From assembly GCA_011033025.1 (NCBI GenBank), contig WFMF01000077.1:1-64000 (forward strand): 64,000 nt of DNA, given 5' to 3'. Within the stretch, counting starts at the first letter, position 1; each line of letters opens with the position of its first letter. Below, piece by piece: positions 930 to 48,089 of this stretch. The notes under the pieces are model-generated. The model saw only the letters and a list, made by a program, of their open reading frames with translations, searched no databases and was not told the origin of the DNA. This DNA is from Beroe forskalii. Lineage: Eukaryota; Ctenophora; Nuda; Beroida; Beroidae. The translations under genes and the position numbers were made by a program.

Positions 930-2216
930 CTGAACGAGGGATGAGACACTGAACGAGGGGTGAGACACTAAACGAGGGGTGAGACACTGAACGAGGGGTG
1001 AGACACTGAACGAGGGGTGAGACACTGAACGAGGGGTGAGACACTGAACGAGTGGTGAGACACTGAACGAGGGGTGAGACACTGAACGAGGGGTGAGACA
1101 CTGAACGAGGGGTGAGACACTGAACGAGGGGTGAGACACTGAACGAGGGATGAGACACTGAACGAGGGGCGAGACACTGAACGAGGGGTAAGGCACTGAA
1201 CGAGGGGAGAGACACTGAACGAGGGGTGAGACACTGAACGAGGGGTGAGACACTGAACGAGGGGTGGGGCACTGAACGAAAGGTGAGACACTGAACGAGG
1301 GGTGAGACACTGAACGAGGGGTGAGACACTGAACGAGGGGTGAGACACTGAACGAGGGGTGAGGCACTGAACGAGGGGTGAGAGACACTGAACGAGGGGT
1401 GAGAGACACTGAACGAGGGGTGAGACACTGAACGAGGGGTGGGGCACTGAACGAAAGGTGAGACACTGAACGAGGGGTGAGACACTGAACGAGGGGTGAG
1501 ACACTGAACGAGGGGTGAGACACTGAACGAGGGGTGGGGCACTGAACGAAAGGTGTGAGACACTGAACGAGGGGTGAGACACACTGAACGAGGGTGAGAC
1601 ACTGAACGAGGGGTGAGGCACTGAACGAGGGGTGAGAGACACTGAACGAGGGGTGAGACACTGAACGAGGGGTGAGACACTGAACGAGGGGTGAGACACT
1701 GAACGAGGGGTGAGACACTGAACGAGGGGTGAGACACTGAACGAGGGGTGAGACACTGAACGAGGGGTGGGGCACTGAACGAAAGGTGAGACACTGAACG
1801 AGGGGTGAGACACTGAACGAGGGGTGAGACACTGAACGAGGGGTGAGACACTGAACGAGGGGTGAGGCACTGAACGAGGGGTGAGAAACTGAACGAGGGG
1901 TGGGACACTGAACGAGGGGTGAGACACTGAACGAGGGGTGAGACACTGAACGAGGGTTGAGACACTGAACGAGGGGTGAGACACTGAACGAGGGGTGAGA
2001 CACTGAACGAGGAGTGAGACACTGAACGAGGAGTGAGACACTGAACGATGGGTGAGACACTGAACGAGGGATGAGACACTGAACGAGGGGTGAGACACTG
2101 AACGAGGGGTAAGAAACTGAACGAGGGATGAGACACTGAACGAGGGGTGAGACACTGAACGAGGAGTGAGACACTGAACGAGGGGTGAGACACTGAACGA
2201 GGGGTGAGACACTTAA
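930..2216 (-). repeat. 19-nt minisatellite abutting the C2 exon acceptor
   Basis: About 65-70 units of a 19-nt repeat; on the minus strand the unit reads TCACCCCTCGTTCAGTGTC. Every unit contains a pyrimidine tract followed by CAG, identical to the real acceptor of the C2 exon at 929/930, where the array stops. Variant units (GGGGTGGGGCACTGAACGAAAGG on plus, near 1261, 1438, 1533 and 1768) recur at irregular spacing, indicating block duplications. Because 19 is not a multiple of 3 and the unit has no stops, long open frames run through it on the minus strand; they are not genes. Confidence 0.9.
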
Positions 2217-4410
2217 CTAGGTGTCATTAGTGGGGTGTCGAGATGGGTGGTTCAGTTTAGAGAATTATACACATTATATTATCTGATTATATTAACTGAT
2301 ATTTAAGTAATAATTACTGAAGAACAAGGGTAGAATCGAATGTTGAGAAATGAAATCATGCACATTTGGCAAGTTTCCTGACCTTGGCTTCGATGATATG
2401 AATTCGTAGTAGACCTCTGATTAGACCCATTTCCAGTCTGCTATCCCGTCCCCAGTAGTGCTTTCCAGGAAACTTTTGAGACAGTTAAAATTCCCCTTTT
2501 TGCACATTTTTGCACTACATTTACTTTTGTTTAATCTAAAAATAAGGCATTTTTCTGGCTCCCGCCTATTGGAATAATTAGACCTTCAGCACCCATGCAA
2601 AGTCTTATTTTGCAGGGGAACCATAATTCAACACACCATTAACAATAAAGAAATAAGATTGGTTGTAATGGATTATTTGGCTACAAATTATAAGTCACCA
2701 AGTAACTAATTAATAAAATACCCTTTCTCAGGTTAATCAAGAAGCAAAAAACAACTTCTACATAACAAGGTGTGAAGTAACGCTTGCAGCTCAAACTAGT
2801 TCAGGAAACGTGTTGAACGTTAGAAGATAGGGTAGCTGCGGCTGGTGTACCAGGTGACCCGAGTTATCCGGTAATTCAATACTCGCTTCACAGGGTGTAC
2901 ACACGGTTCAAATGGACAAAGGGAAAATTATCAAATACGCATTACAACACTCTAAGAGGTTTACGAGACATGATACCCATTATGCACGCTAAAACAGTTA
3001 GGGTTTTAAAGTGGACGAGTGCCAAAAACACTGAACTACAGTTGATAATAAAACCATTTTGGCACTCTAGTACACTCTTATACTGTTTTTCAAAACGTAT
3101 CCTTCTATAGAAGGCAAGAGGTGTTATAAATGAACACTGGGGGTGACAGACCGAAATACAAGGATTATATTATCTGCACTTATTACAAAAGTCAAATACT
3201 AAACAAGCCAATAACACTACATATTCTCATATTCTTGCTTGAATTATACATAATTACGAAATATATACCTACATGTATTGTCGTTGCATAATTCGCCTTT
3301 TGTAACTGCAAAATGAAACCCATTCCATTCTATACACATCCTTCGGCCCAATCTTAAGTTATTTGAAACTTTTGAACAGTTGCATTTATCGCGGTTTGCA
3401 ATTTTTTTAATTTTAAAACTTTGTTTAAATCTTTAAAAATAAGGGTTTTCAGTGTCTTCCTTTATTAATTATTTAGACCTTCAAACAGTTAAGCCTTTTT
3501 TTTGCAACTACATAATTCAAAAACCATTAACTACAGTTGATAAAAAACCCATTTTGGCATTGTACTCGGTGTTTTTCAAAACGTGACTTTACTATAGGAG
3601 GAGAGGTGTTAGAAATGAACACTGGGGTGACAGACCGCAGATTTCACACTAAAGTCACAGTAGCTGCACTTTTTACAATAGCTCAAATACTAGAGGGTGG
3701 CCAATAACACTACATATTCTCATATTCGTTGAATTATACTAATTCACGAAATATATACCTTCATGTATTGTCGTTAGAAGAAAGGGGTAAATCCGGCTGC
3801 AAACCTTCCATTAAAACCTCATATTCGGCCTCGGTCTTAATTCAATACTCGCTTCACAGGATTTTCAAATGGACAAATCGGGTTTGCAAATTATCAAATA
3901 CGCATACAGCCGTGAATCAAAAGTTGTGAAATATGCGGGGTGATTTTGTTATCAAATTTTCTAATCGTAAAACAATCATGATTATAAGTACACAAAATAC
4001 ACGTCGTTATCGGTTTTTGTATTGGCACCTTGCCATGAAGTCTTATACTTAAATACTACATATCCAACTTAATTTAGCTCAACTTATTATTAATCTGTTG
4101 GAAGGCAGCAGTGTTTTAATTGAACCCACTGTGACTCCTCAAGATTCCATTAGGAGAGAACGTTGGCAGCTGATCCTGTCAAGAATCTGTGGAAATTAAA
4201 GAATCAACTGCTTACTTCCCAGTCACCCTTACTCGTTCTTCAGACTTCAGAGATCAAAAGCAAGCCTCAAGACTGCAAGTGAGAGTACACATTGATGCTA
4301 TACAGTAGGACTCATGGTAGCAATCTGGCTTTTCACTCGAAGTTCTTTAAATTTCTATGATTTGTCAAGATTTGCGTGACTTAGACTATAATTAAGGTTT
4401 TGAAGTTTAA
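2217..4410. repeat. Spacer containing an old tandem duplication
   Basis: No exon recognised. Two diverged copies of a block lie in tandem: about 2480-3290 and about 3350-3800. Shared landmarks, in order, are a CTTTTGA..CAGTT segment, a TTAGACCTTCA segment, GTGTTA(T/G)AAATGAACACTGG, and CAATAACACTACATATTCTC. A further piece, TTCAAATGGACAAA followed by ATTATCAAATACGCA, appears near 2909 and 3865. The copies carry many indels, so the duplication is old. Confidence 0.6.
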
Positions 4411-6175: not shown

Positions 6176-6309
6176 GTACTTACTCACTTTTACTGCATTT
6201 CATTTCCTACTCTCCTTTTCCTATTCATTTTACAATATAATTTGCTAATCTCCAAAATATATAATTGGTATTTGATTTGAAAGTGGCCAAAGTAAACTAC
6301 CAAAGTTTC

Positions 6310-7160
6310 TAATCCTCAAAGTCCAGTATTTCTGTCCCACCTACCCCACAGTCTCTCAGTATTTCTGTCCCACCTACCCCGTACTCCCTCAGTATTTCTG
6401 TCCCACCTACCCCGTACTCCCTCAGTATTTCTGTCCCACCTACCCCGTACTCGCTCAGTATTTCTGTCCCACCTACCCGCAGTCCCTCAGTATTTCTGTC
6501 CCACCTACCCCACAGTCCCTCAGTATTTCTGTCCCACCTACCCGCAGTCCCTCAGTATTTCTGTCCCACCTACCCCACAGTCTTTCTGTATTTCTGCCCC
6601 ACCTACCCGCAGTCCCTCAGTATTTCTGTCCCACCTACCCGCAGTCCCTCAGTATTTCTGTCCCACCTACCCGCAGTCCCTCAGTATTTCTGTCCCACCT
6701 ACCCGCAGTCCCTCAGTATTTGTGTCCCACCTACCCGCAGTCCCTCAGTATTTCTGTCCCACCTACCACAGTCCCTCAGTATTTCTGTCCCAACTACCCG
6801 CAGTCCCTCAGTATTTCTGTCCCACCTACCCGCAGTCCCTCAGTATTTCTGTCCCACCTACCCCACAGTCTTTCTGTATTTCTGCCCCACCTACCCGCAG
6901 TCCCTCAGTATTTCTGTCCCACCTACCCAGTCCCTCAGTATTTCTGTCCCACCTACCCGCAGTCCCTCAGTATTTCTGTCCCACCTACCCGCAGTCCCTC
7001 AGTATTTCTGTCCCACCTACCCGCAGTCCCTCAGTATTTCTGTCCCACCTACCACAGTCCCTCAGTATTTCTGTCCCACCTACCCGCAGTCCCTCAGTAT
7101 TTCTGTCCCACCTACCCCACAGTCCCGCAGCCCCTCAGTATTTCTGTCCCACCTACCCGC
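6310..7160 (+). repeat. ~32-33-nt minisatellite preceding the zinc-ribbon exon acceptor
   Basis: About 26 units of TATTTCTGTCCCACCTACCC followed by GCAGTCCCTCAG. Each unit ends in a pyrimidine-rich tract and CAG, that is, a splice-acceptor shape. The last unit runs into CATTGTCTCTGCAG, the acceptor used by the exon at 7174. Variants include CCCCACAG in place of CCCGCAG and a TTTCTGTATTTCTGCC type. Open frames in the array are by-products of the repeat. Confidence 0.9.
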
Positions 7161-7173
7161 ATTGTCTCTGCAG

Positions 7174-7511
7174 ATGGCAACAGAGACGCTGTAGCAAGGC
7201 ATGACAAGAGAGGGGTGCTGAGGGGGGAGTGTGGGGTGTGTGGAGACTGTGGCCAGTACGAAGCAGAGCACGGTAGCTTAGCATGTGCCTACTGCGGGTG
7301 CCCCCCAGGGAAGCATGCTAATCTGGGGGGCTGGAAACAGAGGGGAGTTGGCAGGGAGGGAAACCCACCAACATCACCTGGTCAGCTGGGGATGCCACAG
7401 CAAGATAAGACTCTGGACTCAACGACCCCACACAGGACTCAACTCATGGAGTTACAACCGGGACAGCAACCTTTGAAACAGCTGGAGTCTCAAGTCTCAC
7501 AAGAATTACAG
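7174..7511 (+). CDS. Exon with Cys-rich zinc-ribbon-like module (Ig gene)
   Basis: The acceptor TCTCTGCAG ends at 7173 and the donor TTACAG|GTACAT is at 7511/7512. The first two bases complete the phase-1 codon left by the exon at 6175, and the exon ends in phase 0, so the join is exact. Of about 112 residues, the first half holds CGVCGDCGQYE and then CAYCGCPPGKH, the pattern C-x2-C-x2-C-x13-C-x2-C-x-C-P-P-x-K-H. This probably binds one or two zinc ions, though I cannot name the family. The second half is Gln/Pro/Thr-rich and probably disordered. Its acceptor is the endpoint of a minisatellite. Confidence 0.75.
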
Positions 7512-7766
7512 GTACATCTCAGACATCCAATTCCTACCCAGTTTTTCAAACCCAGGGCCCCTCTAAATACTTAAATATTTTCAACTTCTATGCGTCACTG
7601 CTCAATATCATGTCATCAGACATTGAAAATTCTCTATTCTATGTGGACATACAATGTACCGCCATATTGTGCCGGGAACTCAAAAGAAATGGACCAGTTA
7701 TTATAATTTTGGAAATGCATGATTTAACTCGACCATCTAGAGCAGGTGCCAATGATATTTCCACAG

Positions 7767-8053: not shown

Positions 8054-8262
8054 AGCCTGTGAGAGAGGAAAGCCCGGATGTTCAGGTGAAGGTAATGCCA
8101 GCAGATGGGAGGAGGGTGATCCCAGTCAAGGAGAGGGAGTTCGTGTCGCTGAGGATGGAAATAACCCCTACCACAGTGAAGAAGGGTAGTGTGACGTGGC
8201 TACACAACAACAGGGAAATACTGCCCAGATACCGCGTCAGACTTCTACAGGAACGCAGAGAG
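8054..8262 (+). CDS. Exon encoding the N-terminal half of an I-set Ig domain
   Basis: Acceptor TGTATTTCAG ends at 8053; donor GCAGAGAG|GTATTT is at 8262/8263. Phase 1 in, phase 0 out. The 70 residues contain VTWLHNNREILPRYRVRL, the C-strand Trp and following strands of an Ig I-set domain as in titin, obscurin or palladin-type intracellular proteins. The B-strand position usually held by Cys reads SLRMEI, so the canonical disulfide cannot form; this is known in some cytoplasmic Ig domains. The domain is completed by the exon at 12450. Confidence 0.8.
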
Positions 8263-8286
8263 GTATTTTAAAGTATTGTGTTGCTT

Positions 8287-8649: not shown

Positions 8650-8881
8650 ATCGCATATGAACAAAAGTTCTCCTCCCTCAGTTACAGTAACTGCGTGTAA
8701 AGTTAAAGTTCCCTCCCTCAGTTACAGTTACTGCGTGTAAGGTTAAAGTTCCCTCCCTCAGTAACAGTTACTGCGTGTAAGGTTAAAGTCCCCTCCCTCA
8801 GCTACAGTTACTGCGTGTAAGGTTAAAGTTCCCTCCCTCAGATACAGTTACTGCGTGTAAGGTTAAAGTTCCCTCCCTCAC
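8650..8881 (+). repeat. 40-nt minisatellite, left segment
   Basis: Five to six units of the same 40-nt repeat that fills 10070-12449 (core CCCTCCCTCAGTTACAGTTA then CTGCGTGTAAGGTTAAAGTT). This piece was separated from the main array by the insertion at 8882-10069. Confidence 0.9.
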
Positions 8882-10069
8882 CCAGCCGGCACAGAAACGT
8901 TTTAGATACGTTTAATAAACGTTTTTTAGGAAACCATAACGAAACGAAGTTACGTTTAATAAACGTTTATTAAACGTTCTTTTGCGTAACGGATAAAACG
9001 ATAAAACTGGTTTGAATTTAACGTTTAATAAACGTTTCTTGGGAAACGTTTCTTAAACGTCATACAGAAACGGTAATTAAACAGAATGCTAGGTCTTGTA
9101 ATTTGGTTTATTTTTGGTTTATAAATCGTTTTCAAAAACACGTTTTTTATTGGTTTCCCCGAAACGATAAATAAACCAACTAATTAGTAATTTAATCACT
9201 TAATTATTTCTTAATTTTCGACAGACTTAGCGAGTCCTTCGTCGACCACATGTGTATGCAGTATACACATGGTTGTAACAAAAATTATACAACAGGGATG
9301 TTTTCCACTGTGTTCGCCTTGCAAGGCAAATATTGCTGAGGCTTGCAGGACCAGGGATTATATCTATAGGAATAAAATGTTTCCTTGTGTTTCAATGCAA
9401 CCTCGTTAACTTCGTTTTCAAAAGGTTTATTTTGGTTTGAAAAAATACATATCAAACCAAAAATACACGTTTAAAAAACGTTAATTTTTGGTTTGCAGTA
9501 AACGTTTCTCGCCAACCAAAAATAAACTTTTTCGAAACGTTTATTGTTGGTCTTCAAGAAACGTCTCCACAGAACCAAAAATAAACGTTTCTGTAACGTT
9601 TATTTTCGGTTTTAGGAAAACGTTTTTGTGGACCAAAAATTAAAGTTTTTGGAACGTTTATTTTTGGTTCTGTGCGAAACGTTTCGTGAATACGAACAAT
9701 AAACGTTTCGAAAAAGTTTATTTTTGGTTGGCGAGAAACGTTTACTGCAAACCAAAAATAAACGTATTTTAAACGTTTATTTGAGGTTTCCATAAATACG
9801 CAATTCCAATCCGAAAATTGTTATTATGTAAACCAAAAATAAACGTTTTTCAAACGTTAATAATTGGTTTCATATAAACGTTTTGGATGAACCTAAATTA
9901 AACGTATCAGAAACGTTTATTTTGGGATTTCAATAAACGTTTCTGCAGAAACGTTTATTAAACGTATCAAAAACGATTATCCATAATGTTTGACGGAAAC
10001 CAAATTCAAACCAAATATAAACGTTTATTATTGGTTTATTATTGGTTTGGTTTGAAAATGCCGGCTGGG
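8882..10069. mobile_element. ~1.2 kb foldback/MITE-like transposon inserted in the minisatellite
   Basis: The insert starts CCCAGCCGGCA and ends TGCCGGCTGGG, an 11-bp perfect terminal inverted repeat, and interrupts a repeat unit with an apparent CA target duplication. The interior is built from alternating AAACGTTTATT and AACCAAAAATAAACG blocks in both orientations, so the whole element can fold. No transposase is seen; it would be non-autonomous. The 2-bp duplication is short and could be chance. Confidence 0.75.
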
Positions 10070-12449
10070 CAGTTACAGTTACTGCGTGTAAGGTTAAAGT
10101 TCCCTCCCTCAGTTACAGTTACTGCGTGTAAGGTTAAAGTTCCCTCCCTCAGTTACAGTAACTGCGTGTAAGGTTAAAGTTCCCTCCCTCAATTACAGTT
10201 ACTGCGTGTAAGGTTAAAGTTCCCTCCTCAGTTACAGTTACTGCGTGTGGGTTAAAGTTCTCTCCCTCAGTTACAGTTACTGCGTGTAAGGTTAAAGTTC
10301 CCTCCCTCAGTTACAGTTACTGCGTGTAAGGTTAAAAGTTACAGTTACTGCGTGTAAGGTTAAAGTCCCCTCCCTCAGTTACAGTTACTGCGTGTAAGGT
10401 TAAAGTTCCCTCCTCAGTTACAGTTACTGCGTGTGGGTTAAAGTTTCATCCTCAGTTACACTTACTGCGTGTAAGGTTAAAGTTCCCTCCTCAGTTACAG
10501 TTACTGCGTGTAAGGTTAAAGTTCCTCCTGAAAGTTCCCTCCCTCAGTTACAGTTACTGCGTGTAAGGTCAAACTTAAAGTTCCCTCCTCAGTTACAGTT
10601 ACTGCGTGTAAGGTTAAAGTTCCCTCCCTCAGTTACAGTTACTGCGTGTTAAAGTTCCCTCCTCAGTTACAGTTACTGCGTGTAAGGTTAAAGTTCCCTC
10701 CTCAGTTACAGTTACTGCGTGTAAGGTTAAAGTTCCCTCCTCAGTTACAGTTACTGCGTGTAAGGTTAAAGTTCCTCCCTCAGCTACAGTTACTGCGTGT
10801 AAGGTTAAAGTTCCCTCCTCAGTTACAGTTACTGCGTGTAAGGTTGAAGTTCCCTCCCTCAGCTACAGTTACTGCGTGTAAGGTTAAAGTTCCCTCCCTC
10901 AGTTACAGTTACTGCGTGTAAGGTTAAAGTACCCTCCCTCAGTTACAGTTACTGCGTGTAAGGTTAAAGTTCCTCCCTCAGTTACAGTTACTGCGTGTAG
11001 GTTAAAGTTCCCTCCTCAGTTACAGTTACTGCGTGTAAGGTTAAAGTTCCCTCCTCCAGTTACAGTTACTGCGTGTAAGGTTAAAGTTCCCTCCCTCAGT
11101 TACAGTTACTGCGTGTAAGGTTAAAGTTCCCTCCCTCAGTTACAGTTACTGCGTGTAAGGTTAAAGTTCCCTCCCTCAGTTACAGTTACTGCGTGTAAGG
11201 TTAAAGTTCCCTCCCTCAGTTACAGTTACTGCGTGTAAGGTTAAAGTTCCCTCCCTCAGTTACAGTTACTGCGTGTAAGGTTAAAGTTCCCTCCCTCAGT
11301 TACAGTTACTGCGTGTAAGGTTAAAGTTCCCTCCCTCAGTTACAGTTACTGCGTGTAAGGTTAAAGTTCCCTCCCTCAGTTACAGTTACTGCGTGTAAGG
11401 TTAAAGTTCCTCCTCAGTTACAGTTACTGCGTGTAAGGTTAAAGTTCCCTCCTCAGTAACAGTTACTGCGTGTAAGGTTAAAGTTCCCTCCTCAGTCAGT
11501 TTAAAGCAGTTACTGCGTGTAGGTTGCAAGTTCCCCTCCTCAGTTACAGTTACTGCGTGTAAGGTTAAAGTTCCCTCCCTCAGTTACAGTTACTGCGTGT
11601 AAGGTTAAAGTTCCCTCCCTCAGTTACAGTTACTGTAAGGTTAAGTTCCTCCTCAGTTACAGTTACTGCGTGTAAGGTTAAAGTTCCCTCCCTCAGCTAC
11701 AGTTACTGCGTGTAAGTTAAGTTCCCTCCCTCAGTTACAGTTACTGCGTGTGGGTTAAAGTTCCCTCCCTCAGTTACAGTTACTGCGTGTAAGGTTAAAG
11801 TTCCCTCCTCAGTTACAGTTACTGCGTGTAAGGTTAAAGTTCCTCCCTCAGTTACAGTTACTGCGTGTAAGGTTAAAGTTCCCTCCTCAGTTACAGTTGC
11901 GTGTAAGGTTAAAGTTCCCTCCCTCAGTTACAGTTACTGCGTGTAAGGTTAAAGTTCCCTCCCTCAGTTAAGTAACTGCGTGTAAGGTTAAAGTTCCCTC
12001 CTCAGTTACAGTTACTGCGTGTAAGGTTAAAGTTCCCTCCCTCAGTTACAGTTACTGCGTGTGGGTTAAAGTTCCCTCCCTCAGTTACAGTTACTGCGTG
12101 TGTAAGGTTAAAGTTCCCTCCCTCAGTTACAGTTACTGCGTGTAAGGTTAAAGTTCCCTCCTCAGTTACAGTTACTGCGTGTAAGGTTAAAGTCCCTCCC
12201 TCAGTAACAGTTACTGCGTAACAGTTACTGTTAAAGTTCCCTCCCTCAGTTACAGTTACTGCGTGTAAGGTTAAAGTTCCCTCCCTCAGTTACAGTAACT
12301 GCGTGTAAGGTTAAAGTTCCCTCCCTCAGTTACAGTTACTGCGTGTAAGGTTAAAGTTCCCTCCCTCAGTTACAGTTACTGCGTGTAAGGTTAAAGTTCC
12401 CTCCCTCAGCTACAGTTACTGCGTGTAAGGTTAAAGTTCCCTCCCTCAG
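10070..12449 (+). repeat. ~40-nt minisatellite made of the Ig exon's 3' splice junction
   Basis: About 60 units, 36-41 nt each. A unit reads CCCTCCCTCAG, then TTACAGTTACTGCGT, then GTAAGGTTAAAGTT. The real exon that follows begins CCCTCCCTCAG|TTACAGTTGCTGCGTG, so each unit copies the acceptor plus about 22 exon bases. The exon reading frame (LQLLRVR) also appears as the repeat translation. Many units lose one base in the CCCT or GTAAGG part, partly perhaps from sequencing error. Confidence 0.95.
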
Positions 12450-12575
12450 TTACAGTTGCTGCGTGTAAGGGAGAAGGATGGAGGTCTGTACACGTGTCTG
12501 GTGAAGCATAGCACTGGTAACGGGAGGAAGAGCGCCTCGTGCAGTGTTCTGCTGGATGTCCAGCACGCAGAGTAG
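12450..12575 (+). CDS. Terminal exon: C-terminal half of the Ig domain
   Basis: Acceptor CCCTCCCTCAG ends at 12449; TAG stop at 12573-12575. Joined in phase 0 to the exon at 8262, the protein continues LQLLRVREKDGGLYTCLV, containing the Ig hallmark D-x-G-x-Y-x-C, followed by SCSVLLDV, a typical G-strand, and then QHAE. The Ig domain therefore closes the protein. The exon itself contains GTAAGG 15 bases after its start, a potential internal donor shared with every unit of the upstream array. The gene is convergent with the beta-galactosidase gene that ends at 13009. Confidence 0.85.
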   Translation, partial: LQLLRVREKDGGLYTCLVKHSTGNGRKSASCSVLLDVQHAE

Positions 12576-15549: not shown

Positions 15550-15622
15550 CCGAAGTTTGATCCTCCATGAAACATGTACATGCTGACGCTTGCACCGTAT
15601 GTCAACATCTTATCGAGAGTAT
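15550..15622 (-). CDS. GLB1-like: GLB1-like beta-galactosidase, exon with YGASVSMYMFHGGSNFG
   Basis: Acceptor CACCATTTCAG, donor ACTTCGG|GTATGT; 73 nt. Encodes DTLDKMLTYGASVSMYMFHG followed by GSNFG, the GH35 barrel strand (human ARGASVNLYMFIGGTNF). The acceptor and the first ~20 exon bases are tandemly copied upstream. Confidence 0.93.
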
Positions 15623-15770
15623 CTGAAATGGTGGTTCTTGGTGGTATGAATTAAGATGTCAACATCTTATCCAAAGTATCTGAAATGGTGGTTCTTGGTG
15701 GTATGAATTAAGATGTCAACATCTTATCCAAAGTATCTGAAATGGTGGTCCTTGGTGGTATGATTTATTA
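15601..15770 (-). repeat. Three-copy 57-nt duplication across a GLB1 intron/exon junction
   Basis: On plus, GTCAACATCTTATC..AAGTATCTGAAATGGTGG recurs at about 15600, 15657 and 15714. The first copy spans the real acceptor (CTGAAA at 15623) and the exon's first bases. The other two are intronic pseudo-junctions with an intact CACCATTTCAG acceptor. Differences are few, so this is recent. Confidence 0.92.
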
Positions 15771-16046: not shown

Positions 16047-16244
16047 CTGCGACTTTGGTGCGGGAGTGGGAAGGGAAGTGGGATCCCCAGTGGGACAGCC
16101 AGCCAGGGTAGAACTCTGTGTTGACGGGGGGCCCTCCGGCGTTATACTGAGCTTGCAGAGCGAAGTGAGCTGAGATATTACCCCCTCCGAAATCTACTGT
16201 GTTGTAAAGCTGGGGCAGGGTTCCACAGTCCATCATGTGCTTTC
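16047..16244 (-). CDS. GLB1-like: GLB1-like beta-galactosidase, exon with catalytic nucleophile
   Basis: Acceptor CCCCTCCCCAG, donor GTCGCAG|GTGGGG; 198 nt. Encodes CGTLPQLYNTVDFGGGN and GPPVNTEFYPGWLSHWG. The latter matches GH35 GPLxNSEFYTGWLDHWG, whose Glu is the catalytic nucleophile (E268 in human GLB1). Both the Glu and the surrounding residues are kept, so the enzyme looks functional at this site. Phases fit both the microexon upstream and the exon downstream. Confidence 0.95.
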
Positions 16245-16316
16245 CTGGGGAGGGGGGTAATGTTTAAAGCTGAGGAAGGGTTCCACATTCCATCATGTGC
16301 TTTCCTGGGGGGGTTA
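16206..16316 (-). repeat. Two-copy 60-nt duplication across another GLB1 intron/exon junction
   Basis: The plus-strand text AAAGCTG.GG..GGGTTCCACA followed by TCCATCATGTGCTTTCCTGG occurs at 16206 (real exon start and acceptor) and again at 16266 (intronic). The second copy keeps the acceptor and about 40 exon-derived bases but has changes that break the frame (GCTTTAAACA). Confidence 0.92.
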
Positions 16317-16427
16317 TGAAGTGACTATGGAGACATCAGAGGATGTTATGATGGGGAGTGCACATCATGAGGTATTTCTTATCTTTATTCGAGGAGTGGT
16401 CAATGCTCTGCTCCCTATTGATACCCT

Positions 16428-18412
16428 GATATCTGTAACCCTGATATCTGACACCCTGGTATCTGACACCCTGATGTCTGACACCCTGGTGTCTGACACC
16501 CTGGTGTCTGACACCCTGATATCTGACACCCTGATATCTGACACCCTGATGTCTGACACCCTGGTATCTGACACCCTGATGTCTGACACCCTGATATCTG
16601 ACACCCTGATATCTGACACCCTGATGTCTGACACCCTGATATCTGACACCCTGATATCTGACACCCTGATATCTGACACCCGGCCCTGATATCTGACACC
16701 CTGATATCTGACACTCTGATATCTGACACCCTGATATCTGACACCCGGCCCTGATATCTGACACCCTGATATCTGACGCCCTGATGTCTGACACCCTGAT
16801 ATCTGACACCCTGATATCTGAAACCCTGATATCTGAAACCCTGATATCTGACACCCTGATATCTGACACCCTGATATCTGACAGCCTGATATCTGACACC
16901 CTGATATCTGACAGCCTGATATCTGACACCCTGATGTCTGACACCCTGATGTCTGACACCCTGATATCTGACACCCTGATATCTGACAGCCTGATATCTG
17001 ACACCCTGATATCTGAAACCCTGATATCTGATACTCTGATATCTGAAACCCTGATATCTGAAACCCTGATATCTGATACCCTGATATCTGACAGCCTGAT
17101 ATCTGACACCCTGATATCTGAAACCCTGGTATCTGACACCCTGATATCTGACACCCTGATATCTGACAGCCTGTTATCTGACACCCTGACATCTGACACC
17201 CTGATGTCTGACACCCTGATGTCTGACACCCTGGTATCTGACACCCTGATATCTGACACCCTGATATCTGATACCCTGATATCTGACACCCTGATGTCTG
17301 ACACCCTGATATCTGAAACCCTGATATCTGAAACCCTGGTATCTGACACCCTGATATGTGACACCCTGATGTCTGACACCCTGATATCCGAAACCCTGAT
17401 ATCTGACACCCTGATATCTGAAACCCTGATATCTGACACCCTGATGTCTGACACCCTGATATCTGACACCCTGTTATCTGACACCCTGATATCTGACACC
17501 CCACATCTGACACCCTGATATTTGACACCCTGATGTCTGACACCTTGATATCTGACACCCTGATATCTGACACCCTGATATCTGAAACCCTGATATCTGA
17601 AACCCTGATATCTGACACCCTGATATCTGACACCCTGATATCTGACAGCCTGATATCTGACACCCTGATATCTGACAGCCTGATATCTGACACCCTGATG
17701 TCTGACACCCTGATGTCTGACACCCTGATATCTGACAGCCTGATATCTGACAGCCTGATATCTGACACCCTGATATCTCAAACCCTGATATCTGATACTC
17801 TGATATCTGAAACCCTGATATCTGAAACCCTGATATCTGATACCCTGATATCTGACAGCCTGATATCTGACAGCCTGATATCTGACACCCTGGTATCTGA
17901 CACCCTGATATCTGACACCCTGATATATGACAGCCTGTTATCTGACACCCTGACATCTGACACCCTGATGTCTGACACCCTGGTATCTGACACCCTGATA
18001 TCTGACACCCTGATATCTGATACCCTGATATCTGACACCCTGATGTCTGACACCCTGATATCTGAAACCCTGATATCTGAAACCCTGGTATCTGACACCC
18101 TGATATCTGATACCCTGATATGTGACACCCTGATGTCTGACACCCTGATATCCGAAACCCTGATATCTGACACCCTGATATCTGAAACCCTGATATCTGA
18201 CACCCTGATATCTGACACCCTGATGTCTGACACTCTGATATCTGACACCCTGATATCTGACACCCTGATATCTGACACCCTGGTATCTGACACCCTGATA
18301 TTTGACACCCTGATGTCTGACACCTTGATATCTGACACCCTGATATCTGAAACCCTGATATCTGACACCCTGATATCTGACACCCTGATATCTGACACCC
18401 TGATATCTGAGA
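16428..18412 (-). repeat. 15-nt minisatellite with higher-order duplication inside the GLB1 gene
   Basis: About 130 units of CCTGATATCTGACAC (plus strand). Because the unit is five codons and stop-free, open frames run through most of it on both strands; these are not genes. The segments about 16795-17515 and 17530-18320 show the same ordered series of variant units (GAAACC, GACAGC, GATGTC, GGTATC types), so the array includes a ~740-bp higher-order duplication. It occupies the place where an exon of about 40 codons is expected. Confidence 0.93.
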
Positions 18413-18492
18413 CTAACCTTCCGTCCAACCTAAAAACCCCAGGGTACTTTTAGAAGGCAGTGAGTTGGGTGATAGTCCCCAAAAGGCCTTAC

Positions 18493-18511
18493 TGCCGTAC
18501 TCATTCTCAAC
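18493..18511 (-). CDS. GLB1-like: GLB1-like 19-nt microexon carrying the catalytic acid/base Glu
   Basis: Between acceptor ACAATGTCAG and donor GTAAGG, the 19 bases encode VENEYG plus one base. VENEYGS is the GH35 motif containing the acid/base Glu (E188 in human GLB1). The phase (0 in, 1 out) follows the upstream exon, which ends ..NGGPVIGFQ, exactly as human ..VITVQVENEYG. Either a true microexon, or the start of a longer exon whose remainder was lost; the frame beyond GTAAGG shows no homology. Confidence 0.8.
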
Positions 18512-18692
18512 CTGACATTGTCAGGGGTAATTATTCTCCTCGAGAACTTTCGTCTCTTCAAATTAAACAAAAACAAAACAAAAAAACCTCCTTAATCTAA
18601 AGTTTAAATTGGTGGATGAATGTTAAACAAGTTGTCAGTTTGCTATGACGTAACCACTGAGACAAATTAATAAATTGTTTTGTAGCACCAAC

Positions 18693-19480: not shown

Positions 19481-22400
19481 ACCCCCCCTGATACGTTATT
19501 TTCCAAGTCACATTGTGTCGAAGTATTTTCTGAATTTTGATCAGTATCTCGGGCGGGGGGGGGGTCGTCCTAATAAACTTACTAGTTAACTCATGAAAAT
19601 TTGCAGGTCAGTACAGTTTGATCCAACTAAGAAAATGCTGCTTTCAGAATTTTGAATTTCGGCCATTTTCACGATTTACAGCCTCTTAAAAACTCCATTT
19701 TTGGTCTAAAATGGACTTTTTTGTCTATAATCGTCCACAAGGACCAAAAATAAGGCTGAAAACTGCTTTTTCCCATGTGACTGCCTTTCAGAGAGTGTAC
19801 TAGAACCAAATAATGACGCATTTATACACAGAGTTTTCCCCAAGTCCAATTGTGTCGAAATATTTTCTGAATTTTGATCAGTATCTCTGGGGGGGGGGGG
19901 TCGTCCTACTAAACATACTAGTTAACTCATTAAATTTTGCAGGTCAGTACAGTTTGATCCAACTAAGAAAATGCTGCTTTCAGAATTTTGAATTTCGGCC
20001 ATTTTCACGATTTAGAGCCTCTTAAAAACCCCATTTTTGGCCTAAAATGGACTTTTTTTTGTCTATAACCGTCCACAAGGACCAAGAATAAGGCTGAAAA
20101 CTGCTTTTTCCCATATGACTGCCTTCCAGAGAGTGTACTAGAACCAAATAATGATGCATTTATACACAGAGTTTTACCCAAGTCCAATTGTGTCGAAGTA
20201 TTTTCTGAATTTTGATCAGTATCTCTGGGGGGGGGGTCGTCCTAATAAACTTACTAGTTAACTCAAGAAAATTTGCAGGTCAGTACAGTTTGATCCAACT
20301 AAGAAAATGCTGCTTTCAGAATTTAGAATTTCGGCCATTTTCACGATTTACAGCCTCTTAAAAACCCCATTTTCGGCCTAAAATGGACTTCTTTGTCTAT
20401 AATTGTCCACAAGGACCAAAAATAAGGCTGAAAACCTGCTTTTTCCCATGTGACTGCCTTCCAGGGAGTGTACTAGAACCAAATAATGATGCATTTATAC
20501 ACAGAGTTTTCCCCAAGTCCAATTGTGTCAGAGTATTTTCTGAATTTTAATCATTTTCTCGGGGGGGGGGGGTCCTCCTATTAATAAACTTACTAGTTAA
20601 CTCATGAAATTTTGCAGGTCAGTACAGTTTGATCCAACTAAGAAAATGCTGCTTTCAGAATTTTGAATTTCGGCCATTTTCACGATTTACAGCCTCTTAA
20701 AAACCCATTTTTGGCCTAAAATGGACTTTTGTCTATAATTGTCCACAAGGACCAAAAATAAGGCTGAAAACTGCTTTTTCCCATGTGACTGCCTTCCAGG
20801 AAGTGTACTAGAACCAAATAATGATGCATTTATACACAGAGTTTTCCCCAAGTCCAATTATGTCAGAGTATTTTCTGAATTTTGATCAGTATCTCTCGGG
20901 GGGGTCGTCTACTAAACTTACTAGTTAACTCATGAAATTTTGCAGGTCAGTACAGTTTGATCCAACTAAGAAAATGCTGCTTTCAGAATTTTGAATTTCG
21001 GCCATTTCCACGATTTACAGCCTCTTAAAACCCCATTTTTGGCCTAAAATGGACTTTTTTGTCTATAATTGTCCACAAGGACCAAAAATAAGGCTGACAA
21101 CTGCTTTTTCCCATGTGACTGCCTTCCAGAAAGTGTACTAGAACCAAATAATGATGCATTTATACACAGAGTTTTCCCCAAGTCCAATTGTGTCAGAGTA
21201 TTTTCTGAATTTTGATCAGTATCTCAGGGGGGGGGGGGTTCGTCCTAATAAACTTACTAGTTAACTCATGAAATTTTGCAGGTCAGTACAGTTTGATCCA
21301 ACTAAGAAAATGCTGCTTTCAGAATTTTGAATTTCGGCCATTTTCACGATTTACAGCCTCTTAAAAACCCCATTTTTGGCCTAAAATGGACTTTTTTGTC
21401 TATAACCGTCCACAAGGACCAAAAATAAGGCTGACAACTGCTTTTTCCCATGTGACTGCCTTCCAGAAAGTGTACTAGAACCAAATAATGATGCATTTAT
21501 ACACAGAGTTTTCCTCAAGTCCAATTGTGTCGAAGTATTTTCTGAATTTTGATCAGTATCTCAGGGGTGGGGGGTCCTCCTACTAAACTTACTAGTTAAC
21601 TCATGAAATTTTGCAAGTCAGTACAGTTTGATCCAACTAAGAAAATGCTGCTTTCAGAATTTTGAATTTCGGCCATTTACACGATTTACAGCCTCTTAAA
21701 AACCCCATTTTTTGGCGTAAAATGGACTTTTTTGTCTATAATTGTCCACAAGGACCAAAAATAAGGCTGACAACTGCTTTTTCCCATGTGACTGCCTTCC
21801 AGAGAGTGTACTAGAACCAAATAATGATGCATTTATACACAGAGTTTTCCCCAAGTCCAATTGTGTCAGTATTTTCTGAATTTTGATCAGTGTCTCGGGG
21901 GAGGGGGGGTCCTCCTGTTAATAAACTTACTAGTTAACTCATGAAATTTTGCAGGCCAGTACAGTTTGATCCAACTAAGAAAATGCTGCTTTCAGAATTT
22001 TGAATTTCGGCCATTTCACGATTTACAGCCTCTTAAAAACCCAGTTTTTGGCCTAAAAATGGACTTCTTTGTCTATAATTGTCCACAAGGACCAAAAATA
22101 AGGCTGAAAACTGCTTCTTCCCATGTGACTGCCTTCCAGAGAGTGTAATAGAACCAAATAATGATGCATTTATACACAGAGTTTTCCCCAAGTCCAAATG
22201 TGTCAAAGTATTTTCTGAATTTTAATCAGTATCTCGGAGGGGGGTCCTCCTAATAAACTTACTAGTTAACTCATGAAATTTTGCAGGTCAGTACAGTTTG
22301 ATCCAACTAAGAAAATGCTGCTTTCAGAATTTTGAGTTTCGGCCATTTTCACGATTTACAGCCTCTTGAAAACCCAATTTTTGGCCTAAAATGGACTTTT

Positions 22401-25400: not shown

Positions 25401-28400
25401 CATGTGACTGCCTTCCAGAGAGTGTACTAGAACCAAATAATGATGCATTTATACACAGAGTTTTCCCAAAGTCCAATTGTGTCAGAGTATTTTCTGAATT
25501 TTAATCAGTTTCTCTCAGGGGGGGGTCCTCCTATTAAACTTACTAGTTAACTCATGAAATTTTGCAGGTCAGTACAGTTTGATCCAACTAAGAAAATGCT
25601 GCTTTCAAATTTTGAATTTCGGCCATTTCACGATTTACAGCCTCTTAAAAACCCCATTTTGGCCTAAAATGGACTTCTTTGTCTATAATTGTCCACAAGG
25701 ACCAAAAATAAGGCTGAAAACTGCTTTTCCCATGTGACTGCCTTCCAGAGTGTACTAGAACCAAATAATGATGCATTTATACACAGAGTTTTCCCCAAGT
25801 CCAATTGTGTCAGAGTATTTTCTGAATTTTAATCAGTTTCTCGGGGGGGGGGGGGGTCCTCTAATAAACTTACTAGTTAACTCATGAAATTTTGCAGGTC
25901 AGTACAGTTTGATCCAACTAAGAAAATGCTGCTTTCAGAATTTTGAATTTCGGCCATTTCACGATTTACAGCCTCTTAAAAACCCCATTTTGGCTAAAAT
26001 GGACTTCTTTGTCTATAATTGTCCACAAGGACCAAAAATAAGGCTGAAAACTGCTTTTTCCCATGTGACTGCCTTCCAGGGAGTGTACTAGAACCAAATA
26101 ATGATGCATTTATACACAGAGTTTCCCCAAGTCCAATTGTGTCAGAGTATTTTCTGAATTTTAATCAGTTTCTCGGGGGGGGGGGGGGTCGTCCTATTAA
26201 ACTTACTAGTTAACTCATGAAATTTTGCAGGTCAGTACAGTTTGATCCAACTAAGAAAATGCTGCTTTCAGAATTTTGAATTTCGGCCATTTTCACGATT
26301 TACAGCCTCTTAAAAACCCCATTTTAAGCCTAAAATGGACTTCTTTGTCTATAATTGTCCACAAGGACCAAAAATAAGGCTGAAAACTGCTTTTTCCCAT
26401 GTGACTGCCTTCCAGAGTGTACTAGAACCAAATAATGATGCATTTATACACAGAGTTTTCCCAAGTCCAATTGTGTCAGAATTATTTTCTGAATTTTAAT
26501 CAGTTTCTCGGGGGGGGGGGGTCGTCTAATAAACTTACTAGTTAACTCATGAAATTTTGCAGGTCAGTACAGTTTGATCCAACTAAGAAAATGCTGCTTT
26601 CAGAATTTTGAATTTCGGCCATTTCACGATTTACAGCCTCTTAAAAACCCCATTTTGGCTAAAATGGACTTCTTTGTCTATAATTGTCCACAAGGACCAA
26701 AAATAAGGCTGAAAACTGCTTTTCCCATGTGACTGCCTTCCAGGGAGTGTACTAGAACCAAATAATGATGCATTTATACACAGAGTTTTCCCCAAGTCCA
26801 ATTGTGTCAGAGTATTTTCTGAATTTTAATCAGTTTCTCGGGGGGGGGGGGGTCCTCCTATTAAACTTACTAGTTAACTCATGAAATTTTGCAGGTCAGT
26901 ACAGTTTGATCCAACTAAGAAAATGCTGCTTTCAGAATTTTGAATTTCGGCCATTTTCACGATTTACAGCCTCTTAAAAACCCCATTTTGGCCTAAAATG
27001 GACTTCTTTGTCTATAATTGTCACAAGGACCAAAAATAAGGCTGAAAACTGCTTTTTCCCATGTGACTGCCTTCAGGAGTGTACTAGAACCACATAATGA
27101 TGCATTTATACACAGAGTTTTCCCCAAGTCCAATTGTGTCAGAGTATTTTCTGGATTTAATCAGTTTCTCAGGGGGGGGGGGGGTCTCGTACTAGTTAAC
27201 TCATGAAATTTTGCAGGTCAGTACAGTTTGATCCAACTAAGAAAATGCTGCTTTCAGAATTTTGAATTTCGGCCATTTCACGATTTACAGCCTCTTAAAA
27301 ACCCCATTTTGGCTAAAATGGACTTCTTTGTCTATAATTGTCCACAAGGACCAAAATAAGACTGAAAACTGCTTTTCCCATGTGACTGCCTTCCAGAGTG
27401 TACTAGAACCAAATAATGATGCATTTATACACAGAGTTTTCCCCAAGTCCAATTGTGTCAGAGTATTTTCTGAATTTTAATCAGTTTCTCGGGGGGGGGG
27501 GGGTCCTCCTAGTAAACTTACTAGTTAACTCATGAAATTTTGCAGGTCAGTACAGTTTGATCCAACTAAGAAAATGCTGCTTTCAAATTTTGAATTTCGG
27601 CCATTTCACGATTTACAGCCTCTTAAAAACCCCATTTTGGCTAAAATGGACTTCTTTGTCTATAATTGTCCACAAGGACCAAAATAAGGCTGAAAACTGC
27701 TTTTCCCATGTGACTGCCTTCCAGGGAGTGTACTAGAACCAAATAATGATGCATTTATACACAGAGTTTCCCCAAGTCCAATTGTGTCAGAGTATTTTCT
27801 GAATTTTAATCAGTTTCTCGGGGGGGGGGGGTCCTCCTATTAAACTTACTAGTTAACTCATGAAATTTTGCAGGTCAGTACAGTTTGATCCAACTAAGAA
27901 AATGCTGCTTTCAGAATTTTGAATTTCGGCCATTTTCACGATTTACAGCCTCTTAAAACCCCCATTTTTGGGCCTAAAATGGACTTTTTTGACTATGATT
28001 GTTCACAAGGACCAAAATTAAGGCCGAAAACTGCTTTTCCCCATGTGACTGCCTTCCACAGAGTGTACTAGAACCAAATAATGATGCATTTATAGACAGA
28101 GTTTTCCCCAAGTCCGATTGTGTCGCAGTATTTTCTGAATTTTGATCAGTTTCTCAGGGGGGGGGTCCTCTAATAAACTTACTAGTTAACTCATAGAATT
28201 TTGCAGGTCAGTACAGTTTGATCCAACTAGGAAAATGCTGCTTTCAGAATTTTGAATTTCGGCCATTTCACGATTTACAGCCTCTTAAAAACCCCATTTT
28301 GGCTAAAATGGACTTCTTTATCTATAATTGTCCACAAGGACCAAAAATAAGGCTGAAAACTGCTTTCCCATGTGACTGCCTTCCAGGGAGTGTACTAGAA

Positions 28401-28470
28401 CCATAATGATGCATTTATGCACAGAGTTTTCCCAAGTCAGAGATTTGTCTGTTATTTTCTGAATTTTGTC
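19481..28470 (+). repeat. ~330-bp satellite array (about 27 monomers)
   Basis: Monomers start for example at 19612, 19943, 20280, 20619, 20946 and 21282 and continue every ~330 bases to 28207, marked by GTCAGTACAGTTTGATCCAA. Each has a G-run of about 6-14 bases, a TACTAGTTAACTCATG segment, AATTTTGCAGGTCAGT, and CCTAAAATGGACTT. Monomers differ mostly by single-base indels in homopolymers, plus two truncated monomers (about 22620-22935 and 23928-24226). Short open frames of about 60-80 codons recur in step with the monomer and are not genes. The array is upstream of the GLB1 exons on the same strand, so it may lie in a very long GLB1 intron. Confidence 0.95.
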
Positions 28471-28880
28471 AGTTTCTCGACAAAATATATTTGCATGTTC
28501 ATCTCTTGAATTAGCACGTGCTTATGAGTGTTCCAGTATGAGTTGGAGAAAGGTCTTTTGAATTGTTGAAAGAGATTTCTTTGAATTCCGATATGTTTAA
28601 CCTGATTTTCGGAGATGCTACTCTCAAGATGAGTATTGGATCAGGATGCCACTCTCATTGTTTATTATTTTAACGTAAAAGTGCAAATTACAGAATTAAA
28701 TCCACTTTGTCACTCTGCTTTATTCACTAAGTGTGTTGTTTAATTTCTTGTGCTTTGAGTACAAAAGGGCCAAAGAGCAGTTTCCCAAGTTTCCATTTTA
28801 GGCAGGTGGTGACTCCTTGGTCCTGCAACCACATCGTATAACCTCCAAGGGGTCATGTTGGTGTTCCATGTAGGTGCATG
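28471..28880. repeat. Dispersed repeat, copy A
   Basis: The segment with GAGTTGGAGAAA, GAGTATTGGATCAGGATGC, CACTAAGTGTGTTGTTTAAT and GGCAGGTGGTGACTC recurs in the same order at 31295-31640, with a shorter third start at about 31650. Unidentified repeat family. Confidence 0.7.
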
Positions 28881-30870: not shown

Positions 30871-30877
30871 TGTTTCG

Positions 30878-45154: not shown

Positions 45155-45502
45155 TTGGAACATACAGACACTATTACAGACACTATTACAAACACTGTTA
45201 CAAACACTGTTACAGACACTGTTACAAACACTGTTACAAACACTGTTACAAACACTATTACAGACACTGTTACAAACACTGTTACAAACACTGTTACAGA
45301 CACTGTTACAAACACTGTTACAGACACTGTTACAGACACTGTTACAAACACTGCTACCGACACTGTTACAGACACTGTTACAGACACTGTTACAGACACT
45401 GTTACAGACACTGTTACAAACACTATTACAAACACTGTTACAAACACTGTTACAAACACTGTTACAAACACTGTTACAAACACTGTTACAAACACTGTAG
45501 AT
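45155..45502. repeat. 12-nt minisatellite (ACACTGTTACAG/A)
   Basis: About 28 units of ACACTGTTACA(G/A). As 12 is a multiple of 3 and the unit is stop-free, several frames are open on both strands (for example TDTVTNTV). The plus strand reads from CCGGTGTCGCCGTTGGAACA into the array and ends at a TAA at 45,530, so a short Thr/Val-rich coding repeat cannot be excluded, but nothing supports it. Confidence 0.85.
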
Positions 45503-46485
45503 CACTACACCCCACAGCTTCTCCCTCATTAATTATCTTGCTATCTTGGTCTGACGTCACCTCCTGACGTCACTGATTAATATCATGTATGTGATGACAA
45601 TGAAGAAATATATATTATATATATTATATATCTATTACGGAGAGACCTTTCTTACCTCCACTAAATAGGTGCCTAGAAGGGAGCATTCACTGGTCCATTA
45701 TACAGTAAGAACCGCTAAGTCATCAATAAGGAATTACAGGAAATTAAGGTACATATTATCATAATAGTATAATTAACCAACAAGGCCTCGGGCCTCGAGA
45801 CATGTAGGCTCGGGTAGTCTCACGTAGTTGCAAAAATTTTTCAAGAGACAAATGTCCCGTTTTCACCTGTTTTATACGTCTTCTGAACGGGACATTTTTT
45901 GTCTCGGGACAAAGCAGGACATTATAGGAGCAACTTTTCCACGTTGTTCTCTAATTATTTGGTTAGAAAATTTAATTATTTGGAAAAACCCTATTGCCCC
46001 CCTCCCTCCGCGCTCATTTGGGCCCGCCACCTATCAAAAATGATCCTAGGAAATGGCTTCAATGAGTAGTCTAAAATAAGAAAATAGTCCCCTGTTTAAT
46101 AAGAGCAGAGAAAGTCTGTTACACGGCGATATGATATTTCTCCGCATTCTGTTTTCCTGCCCTCAAGCTACACACGCTGTAACACCGAACTTCATCTAAC
46201 ATTGCGTAGTTTCTGCCTGCCAGAAAGCCTGAAATGTTTTATACAAGCCGTGTTATTAGCAATACAGCTCCTGACATGCCTTCTGTAAGTGTATCGCAAC
46301 CAATTACGTGTGTGTTGGCAGTATAGGTATTTACATTGTATACGGAGTATCCTGCCCGCATGAGGCGGTTCAAATGCAGTGTCACAGCGCAATGTAGCCA
46401 GTCAGCAACGCTGAACGGCCCATTTTTGCGGGGTTGATGTATGTATAATGTTTATAATGATCACAGAATGCAGACAAATTACAGG
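45503..46485. other. Spacer, no gene seen
   Basis: Contains TCTGACGTCACCTCCTGACG..TCA (45,550) and a TATATATTATATAT patch (45,607). AAATGTCCCGTTTTCACCTG..GAACGGGACATTTTTTGTCTC near 45,850 is a local inverted repeat. Confidence 0.5.
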
Positions 46486-48089
46486 ATTCATATGACAACA
46501 CTATTCTGACACCAGGTTTCTCACAGGAATATGACAACACTATTCTGACACCAGGGTTCTCACAGGAATATGACAACACTATTCTGACACCAGGTCTCTC
46601 ACAGGAATATGACAACACTATTCTGACACTATTATTCTCACAGGAATATGACAACACTATTCTGACACCAGGTTTCTCACAGGAATATGACAACACTATT
46701 CTGACACCAGGTTTCTCACAGGAATATGACAACACTATTCTGACACCAGATTTCTCACAGGAATATGACAACACAATTCTGACACCAGGTTTCACACAGT
46801 AATATGACAACACTATTCTGACACCAGGGTTCTCACAGGAATATGACAACACTATTCTGACAGCAGGTTTCACACAGGAATATGACAACACTATTCTGAC
46901 ACCAGGTTTCTCACAGGAATATGACAACACTATTCTGACACCAGATTTCTCACAGGAATATGACAACACAATTCTGACACCAGGTTTCACACAGTAATAT
47001 GACAACCCTATTCTGACACCAGGGTTCTCACAGGAATATGACAACACTATTCTGACACCAGGTCTCTCACAGGAATATGACAACACTATTCTGACAGCAG
47101 GTTTCACACAGGAATATGACAACACTATTCTGACACCAGGGTTCTCACAGGAATATGACAACACTATTCTGACACCAGGTCTCTCACAGGAATATGACAA
47201 CACTATTCTGACACCAGGTTTCTCACAGGAATATGACAACACTATTCTGACACCAGGTTTCTCACAGGAATATGACAACACAATTCTGACACCAGGTTTC
47301 ACACAGTAATATGACAACACTATTCTGACACCAGGGTTCTCACAGGAATATGAAAACACTATTCTGACACCAGGTCTCTCACAGGAATATGACAACACTA
47401 TTCTGACACCAGGTCTCTCACAGGAATATGACAACACTATTCTGACACCAGGTAACTCACAGGAATATGACAACACCATTCTGACACCTGGTTTCTCACA
47501 GGAATATGACAACACTATTCTGACACCAGGTTTCTAACAGGAATATGACAACACTATTCTGACACCAGGTTTCTCACAGGAATATGACAACACTATTCTG
47601 ACACCAGGTTTCACACAGGAATGATATGACAACACTATTCTGACACCAGGTTTCACACAGGAATATGACAACACAATTCTGACACCAGGTTTCACACAGT
47701 AATATGACAACACTATTCTGACACCAGGGTTCTCACAGGAATATGAAAACACTATTCTGACACCAGGTCTCTCACAGGAATATGACAACACTATTCTGAC
47801 ACCAGGTTTCTCACAGGAATATGACAACACTATTCTGACACCAGGTCTCTCACAGGAATATGACAACACTATTCTGACACCAGGTCTCTCACAGGAATAT
47901 GACAACACTATTCTGACACCAGGGTTCTCACTGGAATATGACAACACTATTCTGACACCAGGTTTCTCACAGGAATATGACAACACTATTCTGACACCAG
48001 GTCTCTCACAGGAATATGACAACACTATTCTGACACCAGGTCTCTCACAGGAATATGACAACACCATTCTGACACCAGGTCTCTCACAG
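46486..48089 (+). repeat. 39-nt minisatellite made of the next exon's 3' splice junction
   Basis: About 41 units of GAATATGACAACACTATTCT followed by GACACCAGGTTTCTCACAG. The real exon at 48,090 starts GAATATGACAACACTATTCG, directly after the same GGTCTCTCACAG, so each unit holds the acceptor plus the first 19 exon bases. The unit is 13 codons in the exon's frame (EYDNTILTPGFSQ), interrupted by TAA only where a unit reads CAGTAATATG (four places). Long minus-strand open frames here are repeat artefacts. Confidence 0.95.

What the first reader, a model, noticed from the sequence alone, without database searches (positions are those of the whole stretch)
930..48089. Recurrent 'splice-acceptor minisatellites': tandem arrays seeded at real 3' splice sites
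At six exons in at least four transcription units (acceptors at 929/930 minus, 7173 plus, 12449 plus, 15622/15623 minus, 16244/16245 minus, 48089 plus) the intron ends in tandem copies of its own 3' splice site. At four of these (12449, 15622, 16244, 48089) the units also contain the first ~19-40 bases of the exon, which proves the duplication spanned the intron/exon junction. The series goes from 2 copies to 3 to about 26, 41, 65 and 65, as expected if junction duplications arise and then expand. The result is introns packed with dozens of decoy acceptors. I know of no described process that places minisatellites specifically at 3' splice junctions across a genome. Possible causes: slippage in the polypyrimidine tract, R-loop or spliceosome-linked repair, or a selected role in alternative acceptor use.
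Basis: partly seen in the sequence, partly recalled or inferred. Interest (0 to 1): 0.95.

Follow-up and report, generated by a model that had tools for sequence, protein, structure and literature searches.

The report
Splice-site-spanning minisatellites in a comb jelly
In what is probably a comb-jelly genome, short stretches of DNA that straddle the edge between intron and exon have been copied in tandem up to dozens of times; the same thing is known from lancelets under the name 'mirages', and in the genes tested here it looks like ordinary intron repeat growth that sometimes lands on a splice site, at both ends of introns, not a process aimed at the 3' end.

Summary
The arrays are real at all six places. 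Four of the six exons have homology support: C2, an Ig I-set domain matched across the array intron, and two GH35 beta-galactosidase exons. The exons at 7173 and 48089 have none. The host is a 216 Mb eukaryote, most likely a ctenophore.

The phenomenon is described: amphioxus 'mirages' are minisatellite-like tandem duplications of exon-intron boundaries (PMC3087553, PMC3902484; passages). And it is not specific to 3' splice sites. In dynein genes and one myosin gene picked without regard to repeats, junction-spanning arrays occur at donors too. Their number matches random placement on introns: 3 acceptor- and 3 donor-spanning, 2.6 expected each. Arrays touch the last 20 bases in 10 of 56 introns (rotation control 9.8) and the first 20 in 6 (control 9.8).

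Best explanation: indiscriminate minisatellite growth in introns, purged from exons, tolerated when it spans one junction. The sample excludes only enrichment above about 3-fold.

The parts
930..2221 (-). 19-base tandem array, 66 copies, nearly all ending in an acceptor-like CAG; intron-only unit abutting acceptor 929/930
798..929 (-). exon with C2 domain piece (donor end at 798 inferred by eye)
   Evidence: Pfam C2 E 8.6e-09
6324..7161 (+). 32-base array, 26 copies, in the intron before acceptor 7173 (Tandem Repeats Finder ends it at 7130; last diverged copy read by eye)
7174..7512 (+). putative Cys-rich exon; open frame, no Pfam match
8054..8262 (+). exon upstream of the array intron, first part of the Ig I-set match
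   Evidence: joined with the 12450 exon
8664..8880 (+). first part of the 40-base array, cut off from the rest by an inserted element
8881..10069 (.). insert with 11-base terminal inverted repeats (CCCAGCCGGCA/TGCCGGCTGGG) inside the array; transposon-like
   Evidence: read by eye
10070..12470 (+). main 40-base array, 58 units; unit holds the acceptor plus about 21 bases of the exon (acceptor-spanning)
12450..12571 (+). exon, second part of the Ig I-set match (3' end approximate)
   Evidence: Pfam I-set E 1.1e-07 across the join
15599..15767 (-). 57-base unit, 3 copies, acceptor-spanning (about 24 exon bases)
15552..15622 (-). GH35 exon (donor end inferred by eye)
16200..16312 (-). two diverged copies of the acceptor plus about 40 exon bases (limits approximate)
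16099..16244 (-). GH35 exon (donor end inferred by eye)
16419..18410 (-). 15-base array, 132 copies, upstream of the same GH35 exon but not at a junction
46490..48108 (+). 39-base array, 42 copies, overlapping the proposed acceptor at 48089
48090..48161 (+). proposed exon, not supported by homology

Best explanation
These are 'mirage'-type minisatellites in a probable ctenophore. A short tandem duplication arises anywhere in non-coding gene DNA and expands by slippage or unequal exchange. If the duplicated segment lies inside an exon it is purged; if it straddles one splice junction the gene still works, because the exon-proximal copy of the site remains attached to the intact exon and the other copies become intron. 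Such arrays are therefore the tolerated edge cases of a minisatellite process that already fills roughly a fifth of the intron DNA sampled, at donors as well as acceptors, with donors perhaps more constrained. Shown here: arrays, homology-backed junctions, both junction types, and counts matching random placement. Inferred: slippage or unequal exchange, purifying selection, and use of the exon-proximal copy in splicing.
For: Random-placement model on 51 dynein introns (37 with exact junctions): 34 arrays = 3 donor-spanning, 2 acceptor-spanning, 29 interior; expected 2.5, 2.5, 29.0. Adding 5 introns of one myosin gene: 3 acceptor and 3 donor against 2.61 each, ratio 1.15, 95% 0.24-3.35. Rotation within 56 introns: last 20 bases touched in 10, control 9.8; first 20 bases in 6, control 9.8. 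Array cover: 208 of 12,335 exon-interior bases against 4,840 of 21,436 intron-interior bases. Donor-spanning arrays of about 12 copies by Tandem Repeats Finder, 9-10 with an intact AG/GT, in L033 and L034, unit holding about 44 exon bases. Strong acceptor-like sites in units: 3.5% of 113 unit families, 3.7% in shuffles, 3.5% in random segments. Arrays cover 32% of the window and 17% of the 180 kb beside it.
Against: Small sample from dynein genes plus one myosin gene: acceptor enrichment up to about 3.3-fold is not excluded. Arrays in one intron (six pieces in L043) and in L043/L044, which look like copies of each other, are not independent. Some of the 14 approximate introns skip domain positions and may hide an exon. 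Uncounted near-cases exist on both sides: acceptor duplications 199 bases apart in L043 and alike in L044, and L042 (acceptor); L044 461-537, L046, L050 (donor). In the window 3 homology-backed acceptor-spanning arrays were seen and none at the donors I could place (not a systematic search). Mean acceptor score of units is above shuffles (z 3.7) though not above random segments (z 0.9); donor-like sites exceed random segments (z 3.4) but not shuffles. The acceptor-like 8-mer CCCTCAGT occurs in 7 of 98 unit families, above the control maximum of 5, but these come from three or four independent arrays. The donor deficit is p 0.04 in 56 introns, p 0.19 in the 42 exact ones. No RNA data.
Confidence: 0.72

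Rival explanations
1. Arrays are seeded preferentially at 3' splice sites by a process tied to the polypyrimidine tract, an R-loop or the spliceosome.
For: In the window 3 homology-backed acceptor-spanning arrays and none at the donors I could place; intron-only arrays ending in or next to the acceptor at 929, in L035, L037 and L051; arrays commoner at intron 3' than 5' edges, 10 versus 6 of 56; acceptor-like CCCTCAGT shared by 7 of 98 unit families, three or four independent arrays.
Against: 3 acceptor- and 3 donor-spanning in the unselected sample, each near the random expectation; 3' edges equal rotation controls and the asymmetry comes from a donor deficit; no excess of strong acceptor-like sites in units over shuffles or random segments.
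Confidence: 0.1
2. Acceptor arrays are kept by selection for alternative acceptor choice or tunable protein length.
For: The 19-base consensus at 929 has no stop in any forward frame, and one frame of the whole array is open; the 39-base unit at 48089 is a multiple of 3, so some decoys would give in-frame insertions.
Against: The 40-base consensus has stops in all three frames; the 57-base unit puts a TAA after the duplicated exon piece (read by eye); insertions would fall inside C2, Ig or GH35 domains. No conservation or RNA evidence.
Confidence: 0.08
3. Mobile introner-like elements carrying splice sites.
For: TGACACC recurs in 8 of 98 unit families and TGACACCA in 6 (five loci), the latter above the control maximum of 5.
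Against: Only a short motif is shared; the 7-mer count is within controls (largest 7 in 60 shuffles, 9 in 60 random-segment sets). Junction-spanning units contain the local exon's own bases.
Confidence: 0.03
4. Some cases are artefacts: coding repeats taken for introns (48089) or assembly errors in copy number.
For: The 48089 exon has no homology and the unit is 39 bases.
Against: Four acceptors are homology-backed, copies are diverged from each other, and the same architecture recurs in dynein and myosin loci.
Confidence: 0.07

Closest known systems
'Mirages' of amphioxus (Adh, globin BflGb6/BflGb9, TnC, PGBD5)
   Same: Minisatellite-like tandem duplications spanning exon-intron boundaries, at both 5' and 3' boundaries, many copies with AG/GT signals (PMC3087553 abstract and passages; PMC3902484 one passage).
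   Different: Other phylum (probable ctenophore); copy numbers up to about 66 against the 3 and 6 given for BflGb6 haplotypes; splicing and length instability were examined in amphioxus, not here.
Intron gain by tandem genomic duplication (AGGT-containing exon segments)
   Same: Tandem duplication creating extra splice signals (PMC4974935, search listing only; Rogers model as cited in PMC3087553).
   Different: There a new intron is made inside an exon; here existing introns appear lengthened.
Ordinary intronic minisatellites
   Same: Most arrays here lie inside introns; Tandem Repeats Finder called 13% of the Hormiphora ctenophore genome as repeats (PMC8527503, passages).
   Different: The units of interest include exon bases.

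Membership tests
Mirage (amphioxus-type junction minisatellite) | Tandem unit spans an exon-intron boundary | tested here: met
   12449, 15622, 16244 with homology-backed exons; L033, L034, L040, L050, L051. Not met at 929 and 7173, which are intron-only.
Mirage (amphioxus-type junction minisatellite) | Both 5' and 3' boundaries can be affected | tested here: met
   3 donor- and 3 acceptor-spanning arrays in 56 introns
Mirage (amphioxus-type junction minisatellite) | Unit length about 10-160 bases | tested here: met
   Spanning units 32-74 bases
Mirage (amphioxus-type junction minisatellite) | Splicing not disturbed; exon-proximal site used | not testable with these tools
   No RNA data
Mirage (amphioxus-type junction minisatellite) | Length polymorphism, somatic instability | not testable with these tools
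   One assembly only
Introner elements | Same mobile sequence at many introns | tested here: not met
   In the 244 kb stretch plus loci L033-L051, the most widely shared 7-mer is in 8 of 98 unit families, within controls; only short motifs are shared. No genome-wide unit search was made beyond for one array.
Intron gain by tandem genomic duplication | Duplicated exon segment becomes a new intron | not tested
   Would need orthologous gene structures from relatives
3'-splice-site-targeted arrays | Enrichment at acceptors over donors and over random intron positions | tested here: not met
   more than about 3.3-fold enrichment excluded, less is not

The most novel reading that the evidence does not exclude
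Intron 3' ends in ctenophores are a permissive site where acceptor arrays grow to dozens of copies, vary between and within individuals, and change which AG is used, making copy-number-dependent isoforms and a standing source of new exon or intron boundaries.
Probability: 0.1. Interest if true: 0.75.

Novelty: new member of a known kind. Interest (0 to 1): 0.4.

Why it matters
It carries a curiosity that my searches found only in lancelets to what is probably a very distant animal lineage, which suggests that junction-spanning minisatellites are a general by-product wherever introns are rich in minisatellites. It also gives natural test cases of how the spliceosome picks one site among up to about 66 near-identical acceptors or about 10 identical donors.

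Tried and rejected
Home-made gene finder on 244 kb: overpredicted, dropped. Ungapped 24-base self-match at exact junctions: 3 of 37 donors and 1 of 37 acceptors; judged too strict, replaced by Tandem Repeats Finder. Circular shift over whole loci: 8 acceptor and 6 donor ends of 67 against 9.4 each at 15 bases tolerance; superseded by intron-only controls because exons exclude arrays. Shared core motif: 7-mers within controls; 8-mers CCCTCAGT (7 families) and TGACACCA (6) above the control maximum of 5, but several families share a locus. L049 showed no dynein-like exons. Original Adh paper (NAR 2002) not held: one search used a wrong DOI, another the right PMC id; known only through citations in the two papers above. 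Of 80 rows, 67 lay in the fetched spans; 13 were not used. Left out of the count: the L042 acceptor array (no upstream exon in the table), the L050 donor array (not in the table), and the wide acceptor duplications in L043 and L044; L044 461-537 and L046 413-524 fell under the exon-overlap tolerance and counted as interior although they touch or may span the donor. The two myosin expectations (0.05, 0.064) were worked out by hand. Splice-site weight tables in the scripts were typed from general knowledge of animal consensus sites.

Full report
What is there. Tandem Repeats Finder and direct reading confirm arrays at each of the six places named: 66 copies of 19 bases at 929/930 minus, 26 of 32 bases before 7173, 58 of 40 bases (plus about five beyond an inserted element) before 12449, 3 of 57 bases at 15622, 2 at 16244, and 42 of 39 bases at 48089. 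Pfam supports four of the six exons: C2 at 929; Ig I-set for the exon ending at 8262 joined to the one starting at 12450, the match running across the join; and GH35 across three joined exons starting at 16244, 15622 and about 15265. The third also matches GH35 alone, and a later one weakly matches a beta-galactosidase domain (E 0.0039, below its cut-off). The exons at 7173 and 48089 matched nothing.

Host. The window is the start of a 601 kb contig in a 216 Mb assembly of 1134 contigs. Its mitochondrial contig is 13.3 kb, 17% GC, with 4 in-frame TGA in COX1, strongly diverged Phe-rich proteins and no tRNA found by ARAGORN in the first 10 kb. For two glutamate receptor proteins the Mnemiopsis ML032222a ligand-binding domain (three sequences of 256 residues) gives the only chains of that length among the 60 PDB sequences shown; a third receptor piece did not show it. 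I take the host to be a ctenophore; that ML032222a is from Mnemiopsis and that small, tRNA-poor mitochondrial genomes are typical of ctenophores is recalled, and the identification is inference.

Is it aimed at 3' splice sites? I took dynein heavy chain exons from an HMM table, which knows nothing of repeats, fetched 16 spans holding 67 of its 80 rows, set junctions by frame, HMM continuity and splice signals, and looked for arrays. Arrays straddle donors as well as acceptors. In L034 an exon end of about 44 bases with its GTGAG is repeated about 12 times, 10 with an intact AG/GT; L033 is alike with 9 intact; L040 has one array at each kind of junction; L042 spans an acceptor by about 32 exon bases, L044 by about 5. 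In a fetched dynein continuation (L050) four donor copies occur, and in a myosin gene (L051) seven or eight acceptor copies.

Count against a null. If a unit falls at random on an intron and is kept unless it lies wholly in an exon, 34 arrays in 51 introns should give 2.5 acceptor-spanning, 2.5 donor-spanning and 29.0 interior; seen were 2, 3 and 29. With five myosin introns: 3 and 3 against 2.61 each, ratio 1.15, 95% limits 0.24-3.35. Rotating arrays inside 56 introns, the last 20 bases are touched in 10 introns (control 9.8) and the first 20 in 6 (control 9.8, one-sided p 0.04); in the 42 introns with exact junctions the figures are 8 against 6.9 and 5 against 6.9 (p 0.19). So acceptors are not visibly enriched, and donors may be mildly depleted. 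Unit sequences hold no more strong acceptor-like sites than shuffles or random non-array DNA, though their mean acceptor score is above shuffles. Two 8-mers, CCCTCAGT and TGACACCA, are shared by more unit families than in controls (7 and 6 of 98 against at most 5), partly because one locus gives several families. Exon interiors are 1.7% array, intron interiors 22.6%. The window is 32% array and the next 180 kb 17%.

What it is. [quoted passage not shown] PMC3902484 one passage). My searches with ctenophore and minisatellite or tandem-repeat terms showed no paper describing this in ctenophores: searches (1 paper; 20 of 1,743 listed; 10 of 27 listed), in an open-access library only. Tandem Repeats Finder called 13% of the Hormiphora genome as repeats (PMC8527503 passages), so abundant arrays are not odd for the group.

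Mechanism. Duplication and expansion happen throughout intron DNA; copies with exon bases survive when one intact junction stays next to the intact exon. The exon-proximal unit differs from the homogenised units at 12449, 15622 and 48089, in keeping with the exclusion of boundary copies from homogenisation reported for an amphioxus globin gene. Which copy is spliced is not shown.

Limits. Dynein genes plus one myosin gene, 56 introns, one assembly, no RNA. Some of the 14 approximate introns skip domain positions and may hide an exon; pieces of one array and the L043/L044 pair are not independent. An acceptor enrichment below about three-fold would not have been seen.

Noticed in passing
window 19503-28479: About 27 head-to-tail copies of a 336-base satellite with a poly-G tract fill 9 kb.
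   Followed up: no
window 8881-10069: Insert with 11-base terminal inverted repeats and many AAACGTTT-like palindromes splits the 40-base array, so the array is older than the insertion (read by eye).
   Followed up: partly
window 16245-18520, minus: A VENEYG-like GH35 motif at about 18500 and the exon at 16244 seem to leave some 45 residues of the domain unaccounted for (my estimate from memory of the family); a 2 kb 15-base array fills that stretch. Pfam did not confirm the 18.5 kb piece.
   Followed up: partly
window 16419, 38373, 46490; L042, L048, L050, L051: The 7-mer TGACACC recurs in 8 of 98 array unit families, within controls; the 8-mer TGACACCA in 6 families at five loci, above the control maximum of 5.
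   Followed up: partly
L050 4990-5440 (reverse strand): A GMC-oxidoreductase-like gene beside a dynein gene shows degenerate repeated copies of an exon end near a GTGATT donor; gene name by eye only.
   Followed up: no
L043 and L044: Two similar dynein pieces in opposite orientation share an acceptor region in which the exon start GATCATGAACTGGGAGAGCAAG reappears at the far end of a CCCCTCAGTA array.
   Followed up: no
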